Positions 1 to 7,644 of a DNA stretch of 64,000 bases are shown piece by piece; within the stretch, counting starts at the first letter, position 1, and each line of letters starts with the position of its first letter. Below the pieces are notes generated by a model. That model worked only from the letters and a program-made list of their open reading frames with translations. It was not told the DNA's origin and made no database searches. Where the stretch lies: positions 1-64,000 of the forward strand of contig NZ_AULW01000052.1 in assembly GCF_000422485.1 (NCBI RefSeq). Reading direction: 5' to 3'. Made by a program: the position numbers and the translations under genes. The stretch comes from Paenibacillus pasadenensis DSM 19293 (GTDB taxonomy: Bacteria; Bacillota; Bacilli; Paenibacillales; Paenibacillaceae).

Positions 1-228
1 TTCGTGGGCAGGAACTCGGCGCAGCTGCTTAACGAGGGAGTCGAGAGTACCTTCGCGGCCTGGAATCCGGCAAAGGGGCTCGACGAGGGAGTCGAGAGTG
101 CCCTGGCGGGCAGGAATCCGGCGCAGAGGCTTAACGAGGGAGTCGAAAGTACCTCCGCGGGCAGGAAATCGGTGCGGCTTCTCGACGAGGGAGTCGAAAG
201 TTCCTTCGTGGGCAGGAACTCGGCTTAG
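1..228. repeat. 51-bp tandem repeat array, at least 4.4 units, cut by the left edge
   Basis: The core GAGGGAGTCGA recurs at 34, 85, 136 and 187, exactly 51 bp apart, with a partial fifth unit ending near 226. The triplet before the core alternates: units 1 and 3 carry TTAAC, units 2 and 4 carry CTCGAC, so the real period may be a 102-bp dimer. Because 51 is divisible by three, a frame on the plus strand stays open (17-residue units with the invariant string EGVES) and ends in TAG at 226-228. A minus-strand frame is open too. I cannot tell whether this is the end of a repeat protein or a non-coding intergenic array, and lean to the latter. A short hairpin GGCTGC-CGG-GCAGCC follows at 230-244. 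Confidence 0.85.
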
Positions 229-2485: not shown

Positions 2486-2740
2486 CCCGAGCCCTCCTCC
2501 CCGCCACTCCGCCGGATACGGCAAAAAATCCGCCGACGGCGGATGGATCATGAAAGCGTTGCCGCCCAGCGGGCCAATCACAGACAGGATAACACAGGTT
2601 CCGGACAGGGGCAAAGCGCCTCCCCGGGCGCTCTTCGAGGCCGGGCATCGAGAGCAGGCTCTTTCCCGCATCGGGACGGGCCTGTATACTTACTTTTGCG
2701 AGCGGTTTTGGAAGTTCATGCCTTTGAAGGGGATGCTTGA
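2486..2740. other. Divergent intergenic region, thioesterase operon versus TIR-like operon
   Basis: High-GC sequence without a gene. On the plus strand TGTATACT near 2680 is a plausible -10 for the TIR-like gene, but I see no good -35. No operator-like palindrome is apparent. Confidence 0.3.
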
Positions 2741-3757
2741 ATGACGATATCGAGGAGGCCGAGGGCGTTCATCGGCAGCTCCGCCGAAGCGATCCCGATC
2801 GCGCGGGCGGTCGCCGAAGCGATCGAAAGGCAGGTCGAGGTGAACGCCTGGTACGCCAATACGTTCCAAGCGAACGATTATACGATGGAGGCGCTCGAGC
2901 GCGAGCTGGATGCGAACGACTTCGGCATCTTCGTCTTTGCCGCCGAGGACGTCGCCACCATCCGCAATGAAACGCACTTCATCACCCGCGACAACACCTT
3001 GTATGAAATGGGGCTGTTCTGGGGGCGGCTCGGACGCAGGCGCGTCTTTTGCCTCGTGCCCAGCGTCGTGCCGCAGCCGAAGGAGGCCGGCCCGGCCTCG
3101 ATCCATCTGCCGTCCGATCTGGACGGCCTCACCCTGCTCCGCTATGACGCCGCTCATTCGCGAGGTCCGCACAGCGGGGTATCCACGGCATGCGGGCGGA
3201 TCCTGACGGCGATGCGCAGCGAAGGCCCGTTCAAGCAGCGCCATGAGATTCTCGCCGAGAGCGAGACGCTCGTCCAGCGCAAGGACAGCGTGCTGCATTT
3301 TTTCTGGGAGTTCCTCAAAAACGTCGACATCGCGGATGCGGAGCAGCGCTATGCCGCCTACGCCGAGGCGATCCGCAATTCCATCCTCCCTCCGGCCGGC
3401 TACCGCACGACAGGCGCCGCGCTCTGGAAGCTCACGGACGACGGGCATATCCGCCAGGTCGGCGGCAACGTAGGCCGCGGCCGGACGTTCCCGATCCGCG
3501 CCGACGAGGGGAGATCCGCGGAGGACGAGCCGATCATCGTCGTCAGGGTCCATCTGGACGGACGCTGGAGCTTCTTCAGCCGCAGGGCGATTGCTGACGT
3601 GCATGTCCTGTGTTATCCTTTGGGTAGTGAACATGTTCTGTCGGTCCATTTTTCGGGCAGCCGGCCTCTGGCCGCCGCCCGATTGAAGGAGATTGTCGAG
3701 ATGAACGACGATCTTCTGGCGACCGTCCGCAGCCTGATCGGAGGCGATTCGAGATGA
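2741..3757 (+). CDS. TIR-like (Cap12/PCTIR-type) protein with a GAF-like C-terminal domain
   Basis: 338 residues. Residues 8-135 match the predicted nucleotide-binding TIR-like family (PF10137): FIGSSAE at 10-16, a central FGIFVFAAED strand, then DNTLYEMGLFWGRLG with Glu89 at the position of the NADase glutamate. In CBASS and Pycsar effectors this domain destroys NAD+ when a ligand binds the partner domain. Residues ~200-335 look like a GAF/PAS-type sensor fold by pattern (LWKLTDDG, VLCYPLGSEHVLSVHF, terminal helix), a weaker call. AGGGGA precedes the ATG. The stop overlaps the next gene by 4 bp. No cyclase gene lies nearby, so it may sense its signal directly. NADase activity and a defence role are inference. 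Confidence 0.75.
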   Translation: MTISRRPRAFIGSSAEAIPIARAVAEAIERQVEVNAWYANTFQANDYTMEALERELDANDFGIFVFAAEDVATIRNETHFITRDNTLYEMGLFWGRLGRRRVFCLVPSVVPQPKEAGPASIHLPSDLDGLTLLRYDAAHSRGPHSGVSTACGRILTAMRSEGPFKQRHEILAESETLVQRKDSVLHFFWEFLKNVDIADAEQRYAAYAEAIRNSILPPAGYRTTGAALWKLTDDGHIRQVGGNVGRGRTFPIRADEGRSAEDEPIIVVRVHLDGRWSFFSRRAIADVHVLCYPLGSEHVLSVHFSGSRPLAAARLKEIVEMNDDLLATVRSLIGGDSR

Positions 3758-4005
3758 AGCGTACCGGCAAGTCGAATAGTCGTGGATTCGGATCCATCAA
3801 CGGCCGCAGCCGCGCCGGCCAGGCAGGAGCTCGGGCCGCAGCCGCCCGTCGGCTCCGACCGATGATGGGCAGCCTGGCGGAGGACCCTGCAGCGGTCGTC
3901 GGCAGCCGGGTGTTTGTCGGGCCTTCCGTCGAGGGCGCCGATGTGGAGTTTATCGAGATCGTACGGGGCCCGGTTTCCGAACGGAAGCCGTCCTTCGCCC
4001 GCTAA
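3754..4005 (+). CDS. Small basic protein coupled to the TIR-like gene
   Basis: 83 residues. Its ATG overlaps the TGA of the TIR-like gene (ATGA), implying translational coupling and a shared function. The N-terminal 40 residues are rich in Arg, Gly, Ala and Ser with no stable hydrophobic core; the C-terminal half carries GSRVFVGPSVEGADVEFIEIVRG, a likely beta-hairpin. I recognise no family. It could be a cofactor, an inhibitor or a short structural partner. The alternative is a chance ORF, but the coupled start and the terminator right after its stop argue for a real gene. Confidence 0.5.
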   Translation: MKRTGKSNSRGFGSINGRSRAGQAGARAAAARRLRPMMGSLAEDPAAVVGSRVFVGPSVEGADVEFIEIVRGPVSERKPSFAR

Positions 4006-4013
4006 CGAAATGC

Positions 4014-4045
4014 AAGAGCGCATGGCCTCGGCCACGCGCTCTTTT
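4014..4045 (+). terminator. Terminator of the TIR-like operon
   Basis: AAGAGCGCATGGCC pairs with GGCCACGCGCTCTT (one mismatch) and ends in TTTT. It lies eight bases after the small ORF and faces the convergent MFS gene. Confidence 0.75.
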
Positions 4046-4060
4046 CGTTTGGCGGACAGA

Positions 4061-5368
4061 TCAGCCGGACACGGCAGTCGAGCCCGCAGCGGCGGCGGCA
4101 GGAGCAGCGGCGACCGCGGAGGCCGCCTCCCGCTCCTCCTCGCGGACGAAGCGGGGCAGCGTCGCCAAATAGATGGCGGCGGCGACCAGCAGCAGCGCGC
4201 CGATGAACAGATGCAGCCCCTCGACCGAGAACAGGCTCGGGAACAGCCAGGCGATCAGGCCGAGCATCAGCGTCTGGCCGGCCATCATGATCGGGTCGAT
4301 CCAGGCGTTGACCCGCCCCATCTTCTCCGGCGCGACGAGCTTCGGCAGCCAGCCGCCGATCGCGATGTTGAACGGAGCGAGGAACAGCGCCGCGACAAAG
4401 GTGAAAGCGAGGTAAGCCCAGGGCGAGGTCGACCAGCCGAGGCCGAACACGCAGACCGCCGCAGCGGACATGCAGGCGATGATGACTTTGTGCAGGGCGA
4501 ACTTGCCGACGAGCACCGAGCCGATCGTGCTTCCGACCAGGAAGCCGACGCCCATGAACACCGAGAACATCGAGACGTAGAACGGATAGTTCTCTCCGGC
4601 GAGCTTGTATTTCATCGTCAGCATGGGCAGCATGGCGAAGCAGCCGTTGATGAGGCCGAACAGGATGAAGCCGGCGAGCAGCGAGGCGAGCAGCTTGCGG
4701 CTCAGAATGTAGCGGAGGCCTTCGCGAAAATCGCCCCATACCGACGGCAGGCGCAGCGAGGAAAGGCGGCTGCGGCCGTTCGGCAGGCGGACCGCCTCCG
4801 GCACGCGCAGTCCCCGCAGCAGCAGCGCGCCGATCAGGAAGCCGATCAGATCGACCGTCACGGCGCCGAGCACGCCGACCGAGTGGTAGACGAGCGCGCC
4901 GAGTCCCGTGCCGAACAGCATGAACACGCCCATGATCGACTGGTTGAGGCCGGCCGCCCTGACGTACTGGCTGTCATGCAGGATGCCCTGCAGCATGGCG
5001 CTTTCCGCCGGATAGTAGAACTTCGTCACCGCGCTGCGGAGAAAAAGGAGCAGGAAGATCATCGGGATCCAGACGTCGGAGGCGATGGCTCCGACGATGA
5101 GCGCCGACAGGCCGGCGCGGATCCAGAGCGAGTTCTCGGCGATCCGCTTGCGGTCGAAGCGGTCGGCGAACACGCCGACGAACAGGAAGACGAGCAGCGT
5201 CGGCGCGGAGTACATCATCTCGGCGACCGTCGCGTAGGCGGGCTGGCTGGAGAAGCGGTCGAGCAGGTAGAACGCGAACGCCATCATGCCGATCGTCGCG
5301 GCCAGCTGCGAGCAGACCGTGGCGAAGAACAAGCGGGCGAACGTGCGGTTGCGGAACAATTCGATCAT
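4061..5368 (-). CDS. MFS transporter (MFS_3 / EntS-like family)
   Basis: About 435 residues with some 11-12 hydrophobic segments. I prefer ATG 5368 (MIELFRNRTF) because AAAGGA lies about ten bases upstream; ATG 5380 and 5404 are in frame. The start RNRTFARLFFATVCSQLA and the loop FADRFDRKRI (motif A-like between helices 2 and 3) are typical of PF05977 proton-driven exporters, which include enterobactin and macrolide-type efflux proteins. The C-terminus is Ala-rich low complexity. Substrate unknown. It follows the 52-bp repeat array and is apparently monocistronic. Confidence 0.85.
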   Translation of the reverse strand: MIELFRNRTFARLFFATVCSQLAATIGMMAFAFYLLDRFSSQPAYATVAEMMYSAPTLLVFLFVGVFADRFDRKRIAENSLWIRAGLSALIVGAIASDVWIPMIFLLLFLRSAVTKFYYPAESAMLQGILHDSQYVRAAGLNQSIMGVFMLFGTGLGALVYHSVGVLGAVTVDLIGFLIGALLLRGLRVPEAVRLPNGRSRLSSLRLPSVWGDFREGLRYILSRKLLASLLAGFILFGLINGCFAMLPMLTMKYKLAGENYPFYVSMFSVFMGVGFLVGSTIGSVLVGKFALHKVIIACMSAAAVCVFGLGWSTSPWAYLAFTFVAALFLAPFNIAIGGWLPKLVAPEKMGRVNAWIDPIMMAGQTLMLGLIAWLFPSLFSVEGLHLFIGALLLVAAAIYLATLPRFVREEEREAASAVAAAPAAAAAGSTAVSG

Positions 5369-5769
5369 GGCGGATCCCATCCTTTTTCCGGGGAAGTCGT
5401 TCATCTGCTTCCAAGTATAGGATGGGAGGCCGTGTCCGATGAAGCGGCGCGGGGATGAATCCGCGCTCGTTCCCTGGCCTGCGAAGGGACTCGGTCCCGA
5501 GGCGGAGGCGGGGACGGGGACGGGGACGGGGCAAAAAACGTGAAGGCACCTGTTCGAGCCTAGTTGCCCGATTTTTCCGCGTAACTCCGCCGTGAAGGCA
5601 CCTGTTCGAGCCTAGTTGCTCGGTTTTTCCGCGCAACTCCGCCGTGAAGGCACCTGTTCGAGCCCAGTTGCTCGGTTTTTCCGCGTATCTCCGCCGTGAA
5701 GGCACCTATTCGAGCCTAGTTGCTCGGTTTTTCCGCGTATCTCCGCCGTGAAGGCGGTGGAATCACCGC
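5369..5769. other. Intergenic gap between two MFS genes
   Basis: It holds the 52-bp repeat array (5539-5757) and, at about 5508-5531, a short run of GGCGGAG and GACGGG hexamers. No convincing ORF; the long open frames here follow the repeat and have no ribosome site. Confidence 0.6.
5539..5757. repeat. 52-bp tandem repeat array, four full copies plus a fragment
   Basis: Units begin at 5539, 5591, 5643 and 5695, with a partial at 5747, every 52 bp. The conserved pieces are CGTGAAGGCACCTGTTCGAG, CCTAGTTGCTCGG and TTTTTCCGCG, with one to three substitutions per copy. It sits 3' of the Bcr-type gene and 5' of the MFS_3 gene on the minus strand. Fifty-two is not divisible by three, so it does not encode a periodic peptide. 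Confidence 0.93.
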
Positions 5770-7046: not shown

Positions 7047-7442
7047 TTACTTGTTTATCCATGGGTTGAAAACGGAAGCCTTGCAACGCTCCAAGCCATG
7101 CACATTGCGGGTTACAACCGTTAAATGATGGGCAATGGCTGTAGCTGCAATCAGGCTGTCCATGACCGGCAGCGGCGTTCCGTTTCTTTCCGCTTGTCCC
7201 TGGATGCTGCCCCACGCAAGCAGGGTATCCAGATCAAGGGGGAGAACTCGCCCGTCAAACCGGCTTCTCAAGTCCTGGTCGATCCAGGCTTGCAATCGTT
7301 CGGCACGGTTTTTGTCGCTTAATTTGGAAATCCCTTTTTGTAATTCTCCAAACGTGATGACGCTTAAGAATAGTGTGGATTCGTCTCGTTCATCAATCCA
7401 GCGTAGGACGCCTGAATCGGGTTCCTTCTTTGCTTCAATCCA
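7047..7442 (-). pseudogene. PIN-domain (VapC/FitB-like) toxin lacking its N-terminus
   Basis: Reading in frame from about 7442: GVLRWIDERDESTLFLSVIT, then FGELQKGISKL, PVMDSLIAATAIAHHLTVVT and RNVHGLE are clear PIN-domain segments retaining the acidic residues of the middle and C-terminal part. The usual N-terminus (hydrophobic strand plus LLDTN with the first catalytic Asp) is absent: upstream codons read a different sequence to an in-frame stop, with no ATG, GTG or TTG at a suitable place. The first usable TTG (7295) would delete another 47 residues. The antitoxin frame runs straight into this one, consistent with one small deletion. A functional RNase is unlikely. Confidence 0.8.
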
Positions 7443-7644
7443 AATCGAGATCGTACAGAGGAGAGTCCTTGAAAAAATCCGTCAGACGCGTTTTCGGTTT
7501 CGTTAAACGTTGATATTCTTCCATCGACAGAACGACTGCTGCGGGCATTCCCCGTACCGTTATCATTTGCGGGCCTTCATCGGCTGCTTTCTTCACGACG
7601 GAGCTTAATTGATTCTTAGCGTCTTGAAGCTGCCACTGCATCAT
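7435..7644 (-). CDS. Phd/YefM-type antitoxin, C-terminally truncated
   Basis: 69 residues (or 68 from the second ATG). MQWQLQDAKNQLSSVVKKA is the Phd/YefM DNA-binding fold, followed by the conserved ITVRGMPAAVVLSMEEYQRL. Family members usually run about 80-85 residues with a toxin-binding tail; here it stops at LYDLDLD, just where the toxin remnant begins. A good GGGGAG ribosome site precedes the start. The region is AT-richer than its neighbours, as expected of an acquired cassette. It may still bind DNA, but its toxin-neutralising tail is shortened. Confidence 0.85.
   Translation of the reverse strand: MMQWQLQDAKNQLSSVVKKAADEGPQMITVRGMPAAVVLSMEEYQRLTKPKTRLTDFFKDSPLYDLDLD

What the first reader, a model, noticed from the sequence alone, without database searches (positions are those of the whole stretch)
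2741..4005. TIR-like/GAF-like protein with a coupled small basic protein: candidate defence operon
The first protein has a PF10137-type TIR-like domain with the conserved Glu (residue 89) and a C-terminal domain that looks like a GAF sensor, instead of the STING, SAVED or cyclic-nucleotide domains known in CBASS and Pycsar effectors. No cyclase gene is near, so the sensor may bind its signal directly. The 83-residue partner overlaps by four bases, and a terminator closes a compact two-gene unit. NADase and antiphage roles are inference.
Basis: partly seen in the sequence, partly recalled or inferred. Interest (0 to 1): 0.72.

Follow-up and report, generated by a model that had tools for sequence, protein, structure and literature searches.

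The report
TIR-GAF effector with small antidote-like partner
Two overlapping bacterial genes, a probable NAD-destroying enzyme and a tiny partner protein, travel together across many genomes of one group of soil bacteria, and large viruses carry a copy of the partner's key stretch, which suggests that the partner is an antidote the viruses have borrowed to switch a suicide defence off.

Summary
Window 2741-3757 (+) encodes a 338-aa protein: an N-terminal PF10137 TIR domain with Glu89, and a C-terminal domain without GAF sequence signal that AlphaFold2 and structural alignment show to be a GAF fold. An 83-aa ORF overlaps it by ATGA (3754-4005) and is a real, selected gene. A partner candidate followed the effector at 124 of 124 loci tested (91 distinct effectors), mostly with a basic variable head and a ~30-aa conserved tail (GPS.EG.D.EY..k.SGKV..KPSFA).

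(1) The partner seems to follow the GAF part, not the catalytic TIR: it is absent behind five TIRs lacking that part and, by eye, kept where the active TIR is a separate gene. (2) Loss is one-sided: intact partners stand beside dead effectors, under purifying selection; no intact effector without a partner was met. (3) Four viral contigs of 164-175 kb encode a mini-protein with the tail but no head.

Best reading: a TIR-GAF NADase held off by a translationally coupled antidote-like partner, with phages carrying a mimic. NADase activity, inhibition and phage defence are inferred. No recurrent defence-gene neighbour was found.

The parts
2741..3757 (+). effector gene, 338 aa TIR-GAF protein
2756..3232 (+). 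TIR domain (residues 6-164), PF10137 type, Glu89 at 3005-3007
3260..3754 (+). GAF-fold C-terminal domain (residues 174-338)
3754..4005 (+). small basic partner gene, 83 aa, ATGA overlap with the effector stop
3910..3999 (+). conserved tail of the partner (residues 53-82), the part shared with the phage mini-proteins
2685..2690 (+). -10-like TATACT; a TTTCCC at 2662-2667 stands 17 bases upstream in the place of a -35
   Evidence: TTTCC followed 17-19 bases on by a TATA-type hexamer in 7 of 43 non-redundant loci, TTGAC in 0 of 43; the sigma-70 scan found no site in 2500-4200
4014..4043 (.). terminator-like hairpin between the partner and the convergent MFS gene (passes the scan on the minus strand only, not above chance for the region)

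Best explanation
A two-gene suicide-type module. The first protein is a TIR NADase (inferred from fold and Glu89) whose activity is controlled by its GAF-fold domain. The second, made by translational coupling, is an antidote-like partner. Its conserved ~30-residue tail docks on the GAF-bearing protein and keeps the TIR domain inactive, while its mostly basic, variable head senses or is exposed to an infection-linked event (binding, displacement or degradation) that lifts the block and lets the TIR destroy NAD+. Large phages that also occur inside host chromosomes carry a tail-only mini-protein that would keep the effector silent. Shown here: gene pair, folds, conservation, one-sided loss, phage-borne tail; partly shown: linkage of the partner to the GAF part. 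Inferred: NADase activity, binding, direction of control (inhibition), trigger, antiphage effect.
Confidence: 0.48

Rival explanations
1. The partner is an obligatory activator or sensor subunit, not an antidote: its head recognises an infection product and its tail docks on the GAF domain to switch the TIR on. The phage mini-protein is then a tail-only decoy that blocks the docking site.
For: The phage version lacks the basic head, as a decoy would. Constant co-occurrence fits an obligatory subunit equally well. Known TIR effectors are switched on by a bound signal (PycTIR by cUMP, passages of PMC11224242).
Against: Orphan partners stay intact and selected beside dead effectors, which an activator without its enzyme would not explain.
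Confidence: 0.25
2. A chromosomal stress or developmental regulator rather than defence: the GAF domain reads a metabolic state and the TIR trims NAD+ in sporulating Paenibacillales.
For: In what was searched, full-length effectors lie in one order apart from a Terribacillus plasmid; frequent in genus g5; split variant beside genes that look like gpr and spoIIP; the most frequent neighbour families are ordinary.
Against: Patchy in the window's own genus (3 of 8 genomes), different chromosomal places, scattered over genera on the tree (37 label changes, least possible 19, shuffled mean 45), on a plasmid, and a tail copy in phages.
Confidence: 0.2
3. One reading: the GAF domain binds a diffusible small molecule that activates the TIR, and the small protein is an accessory.
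For: GAF domains are classical small-ligand sensors (recalled); fold shown.
Against: The partner was missing beside no intact effector examined and its tail tracks the GAF part, more than an accessory would need. No SMODS cyclase in the genome.
Confidence: 0.1

Closest known systems
Cap12 TIR-STING (CBASS effector; 7un8, 9lmq)
   Different: GAF fold instead of STING; no SMODS CD-NTase in the genome; a coupled small partner
PycTIR (Pycsar effector; 8jsj)
   Same: closest solved sequence to the TIR part (E 1.5e-19)
   Different: PycTIR has an N-terminal cyclic-nucleotide domain and a C-terminal TIR (PMC11224242, passages); here the order is reversed and the second domain is a GAF fold
SpbK-Nip (Bacillus subtilis ICEBs1 TIR defence and the counter-defence of SPbeta-like phage phi3T)
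   Same: TIR NADase and a phage-encoded inhibitor (PMC11984713, abstract and outline)
   Different: Nip binds the TIR domain of SpbK; here the phage protein copies the tail of the host's own partner and the link is to the GAF part
NatR-NatT (NAD-depleting toxin-antitoxin pair of Pseudomonas aeruginosa)
   Same: chromosomal NAD-depleting toxin-antitoxin pair (PMC11535050, abstract and outline)
   Different: NatT is an NAD+/NADP+ phosphorylase (section heading), not a TIR; no relation in sequence was tested

Membership tests
PF10137 CAP12/Pycsar TIR domain | match above the curated cut-off | tested here: met
   84.6 bits against 24.7; 44 of 44 members match
CBASS Cap12 (TIR-STING) | STING domain behind the TIR | tested here: not met
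   NCBIfam Cap12 models reach at most 88.6 of 450 bits, over residues 6-140; residues 174-338 align to GAF domains
CBASS | CD-NTase gene | tested here: not met
   one family only: PF18144 SMODS 0 of 1 in the own genome; none among the 25 most frequent Pfam families of 137 neighbours of relatives
[quoted passage not shown]
   TIR is N-terminal; no CNBD hit in Pfam
Pycsar PycTIR | adjacent pyrimidine cyclase | tested here: inconclusive
   the three flanking window genes tested are thioesterase, HAD hydrolase and MFS; none among the 25 most frequent neighbour families (capped); not searched genome-wide
GAF domain | GAF fold | tested here: met
   (predicted structure)
GAF domain | sequence profile match | tested here: not met
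   no GAF hit in 44 members; hhalign probability 0.2-0.4%
toxin-antitoxin pair | toxin and small partner overlap and are inherited together | tested here: met
toxin-antitoxin pair | loss is one-sided: orphan antidotes, no orphan toxins | tested here: met
   perhaps four independent events
toxin-antitoxin pair | partner neutralises the toxin | not testable with these tools
   needs expression assays
antiphage defence system | protects against phage | not testable with these tools
   indirect only: phage-borne tail
antiphage defence system | clusters with known defence genes | tested here: inconclusive
   no PADLOC family in more than 2 of 137 neighbours, the top ones type I specificity subunits; 25 of 123 families shown, total number of neighbours hit not shown

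The most novel reading that the evidence does not exclude
A previously undescribed TIR-GAF abortive-infection module whose off switch is a short tail peptide. Hosts keep orphan copies of the antidote after the effector has died, as protection against incoming copies, and large phages have taken the tail as a counter-defence, so host and phage carry the same inhibitory peptide.
Probability: 0.4. Interest if true: 0.86.

Novelty: new variant of a known kind. Interest (0 to 1): 0.75.

Why it matters
It would add a sensor fold (GAF) to the known TIR effectors, give a TIR NADase an own antidote, and show phages copying a host antidote tail of about 30 residues. The peptide gives a direct test of how TIR effectors are held off. 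No family in Pfam, PADLOC or NCBIfam matched the window's small partner, and only scattered chance-level Pfam hits appeared among its 44 relatives.

Tried and rejected
Internal stops in relatives looked like recoding; in the loci read (L065-L068) they are the ordinary ends of slightly shorter proteins.

Defence-island association: I took ORFs from my own crude gene picker, 193 within three genes and 100-900 aa; 148 fitted the size limit, I left out 11 of these by hand, and 137 were scanned. No defence family recurs; the lists are capped, so a lesser association is not excluded. One copy (L120) sits beside prophage-like genes.

GAF by sequence: no support, so I relied on the predicted structure. 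Small partner against solved structures: no match. Effector in the phage collection: no match. Phage mini-proteins in the phage collection: no match. Window partner in viral contigs: 40 stretches matched a pattern, none confirmed. LexA-type box upstream: seen in L029 only, not pursued. Empty-site comparison in the genus: the two MFS genes stay together without the effector in L112-L114, but the thioesterase is not within the 1.5 kb held beside them, so no clean empty site.

Column-pair mutual information between tail and effector gave 61 of the top 100 pairs in the linker/GAF part where 51% is expected: weak, not used alone. The strongest single pair involves C104 of the TIR part.

Not done: complex prediction of effector plus partner; fold prediction of the split variant.

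On checking, I lowered the defence-island test to inconclusive, described the split variant's likeness as by eye, and lowered two odds slightly (best explanation 0.50 to 0.48, novel case 0.42 to 0.40).

Full report
What is there. The genome's family probably is that of Paenibacillus typhae: locus L002 bears that name, and its contig has the same length as contig C49 of genome G252 of the family. Upstream on the minus strand lie a thioesterase and a HAD hydrolase, downstream on the minus strand an MFS transporter. Protein 1 matches PF10137 over residues 9-136 (E 7e-24), PADLOC TIR effectors and PycTIR over about 5-165, and solved PycTIR and TIR-STING chains by sequence. The genome has one copy at E <= 10.

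The partner is a gene. Between the window and its 93%-identical relative L033 the small ORF has dS 0.295 and dN 0.051 (ratio 0.17); the two shadow frames give 1.7-1.8. Relatives at 29-66% identity keep a small ORF in the same place. In a script over the loci then held, 125 loci had a match covering at least 85% of a query effector; one was dropped by a length filter and not examined; the other 124 (some places fetched twice) all had a partner candidate of 45-139 aa near the effector's stop. They reduce to 91 distinct effectors, 67 with the four-base overlap. Partner length is 52-110 aa (median 75), median net charge +8 in the head and 0 in the last 32 residues. The head is variable; the tail has consensus VVYIGPSVEGGDKEYVKVLSGKVDYRKPSFA, with a second class ending in ..RKA.Y.KPSF. 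L054 and L080 keep little of the tail. No library names it.

Distribution. Effector: 182 of 394 genomes of the family at E <= 1e-5; 184 of 392 drawn from the order at 1e-30, the separate TIR genes of the split variant included; 7 of 398 drawn from the phylum at 1e-10, six of these in the same family, the own genome included, and the seventh matching only model positions 2-123. Partner model: 180 of 394 family genomes. Comparing the two listings by hand, 173 genomes have both. Nine have an effector match only: eight of these have only partial matches, and G377 has the partner on inspection. Seven have a partner match only. In the window's own genus 3 of 8 genomes have the effector. Outside the order, a Terribacillus plasmid carries a 29%-identical effector with a 52-aa overlapping partner, annotated as nucleotide-binding protein and hypothetical protein. 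On a tree of 66 effectors the genus label needs 37 changes against a minimum of 19 (shuffled mean 45); the window's clade of seven rows mixes four genera of two families (SH-aLRT 100). Neighbours differ from place to place while the partner stays. The pair therefore seems to move as a unit, although some genera keep it in many genomes (58 g5 genomes listed with a match; how many g5 genomes were searched is not shown).

Partner goes with the GAF part. Five TIR relatives whose match ends before the GAF part (L150-L154; two look like near-copies) have no partner. In six loci of genera g305 and g298 (L159-L164) the arrangement is split: a 157-160 aa TIR with RDNVILELGLFIG, then a ~325-331 aa protein whose N-terminal TIR-like part lacks that motif, then a 53-55 aa ORF (such as KLYNGPTVLNKTSGVTIVAKGSFDFGSVV). 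In L162 the second protein aligns to window residues 3-335 at 21% identity (E 1e-8); for the others, and for the small ORF, the likeness is by eye. In L164 the middle gene is broken while the small ORF is intact. Genes that look like gpr (upstream, five of six) and spoIIP (downstream, four of six) flank it in what the script printed, plus-strand ORFs only (names recalled). Tail distances correlate with GAF-part distances after removing the TIR part (partial r 0.57) more than the reverse (0.33), in 99% of 500 bootstraps over 63 sequences. In G847 an in-frame deletion joins the TIR domain to a partner tail, a single case, possibly decay.

One-sided loss. Partner-like loci without an effector match were fetched (20, more). 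Intact partners stand next to decayed effector remnants in L184, L188, L191-L195, L197 and L206, and next to frame-broken effectors in L055 and L204: 11 loci. Partner-like frames without any recognisable effector: L179, L180, L181, L185, L186, L198, L205, L207 (L179 and L186 show no ATG in the frame printed). L182 and L183 hold stops and L189 is short: here the partner itself decays. Eight g5 tails of 33 codons, seven from loci with dead effectors, have pooled dN/dS 0.14. No intact effector without a partner was met. That is what an antidote leaves behind. Eight of the 11 loci are of genus g5 and may share one ancestral loss, so I count about four independent events.

Phage copies. Three partner-only hits (L187, L190, L196) lay in a different setting: short ORFs with the tail but no basic head, behind a DHH-phosphoesterase-like gene. 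The mini-protein occurs in four IMG/VR contigs of 163,994-174,510 bases, one identical to the copy in genome G173. Of ten neighbouring or mini-proteins scanned, five match PHROGs, among them a RecJ-like ssDNA exonuclease (phrog_2484, E 1e-105) and an RNA ligase (phrog_968, E 7e-67); the two mini-proteins match none. The exonuclease's best relatives, at 30-37% identity in the 15 records listed of 152, are mostly in phages of 115-166 kb, such as Alicyclobacillus phage KKP_3916, Bacillus phages FADO and PJN02, and vB_BcoS-136, where it is annotated as SPBc2-prophage-derived. The mini-protein aligns to the partner of the G173 pair over 33 columns at 61% identity (A4). G173 and G250 hold both a pair and a mini-protein (in the G250 copy a stop stands before the first Met of the frame printed); G181 only the mini-protein. 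The four phage records show no effector, without positive control. A copy of the conserved tail in a phage region is best explained as counter-defence. It does not by itself say whether the tail inhibits or merely competes.

How it most likely works. The TIR fold, Glu89 in 91 of 91 and PycTIR/TIR-STING kinship imply NAD+ cleavage after assembly (for those families: PMC11224242 passages; PMC13142454 passages). The GAF part would receive the partner's tail. With the partner bound, the TIR is off; infection removes or alters the partner. The best precedent for a phage protein that silences a TIR NADase is Nip against SpbK (PMC11984713, abstract and outline), and for a chromosomal NAD-depleting toxin with antidote NatR-NatT (PMC11535050, abstract and outline). 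I put 0.48 on this, 0.25 on the activator-plus-decoy version, 0.2 on a housekeeping role.

Known or not. Six searches of the open PMC library listed no paper whose title or shown start of abstract describes this pair; PF10137 is mentioned in two papers, one listed. Most subscription papers are not in that library. The thing is a variant of known kinds (TIR effectors, NAD-depleting toxin-antitoxin pairs). I do not file it under CBASS or Pycsar: the STING domain, the SMODS cyclase and the N-terminal cyclic-nucleotide domain were tested and not met, and a pyrimidine cyclase was not searched genome-wide.

Noticed in passing
L159-L164 (genera g305, g298): Split three-gene version of the module beside genes that look like gpr and spoIIP (recalled names): separate active TIR, TIR-like protein without the RDN..E motif and with a possible GAF part, small partner-like ORF.
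   Followed up: partly
L149 / L165:3995-4540 (in the reverse complement): In-frame deletion fusing the TIR domain directly to a partner tail, GAF part lost; one genome only.
   Followed up: partly
L080:6007-7169 (Terribacillus plasmid pDMT04): Distant plasmid-borne copy of the pair in Bacillaceae, annotated nucleotide-binding protein plus hypothetical protein.
   Followed up: partly
L199-L202, L187, L190: Phage mini-proteins with the partner tail and an added C-terminal stretch like SDEI.DTL.EFD; L196 has the tail without that stretch.
   Followed up: partly
window 2662-2690 and upstream of relatives: -10-like element in 34 of 43 loci but no TTGAC -35 in any; seven have TTTCC in its place, suggesting an activated or unusual promoter.
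   Followed up: partly
window 7047-7644 (-): Two small minus-strand ORFs that look like a PIN-type toxin (7047-7295) and a Phd/YefM-type antitoxin (7435-7644) (names recalled).
   Followed up: no
window 4-228 and 5612-5705: Short repeated peptide units in the ORF translations (EGVES..GRN; EQLGSNRCLHGG), probably intergenic repeats.
   Followed up: no
L165:4691-5291 (in the reverse complement): Repeated peptide units in overlapping ORFs just downstream of the fused TIR-tail gene.
   Followed up: no
L120: Copy of the pair at the edge of a predicted virus region beside what look like an XRE-type regulator and a peptidase gene (names recalled).
   Followed up: partly
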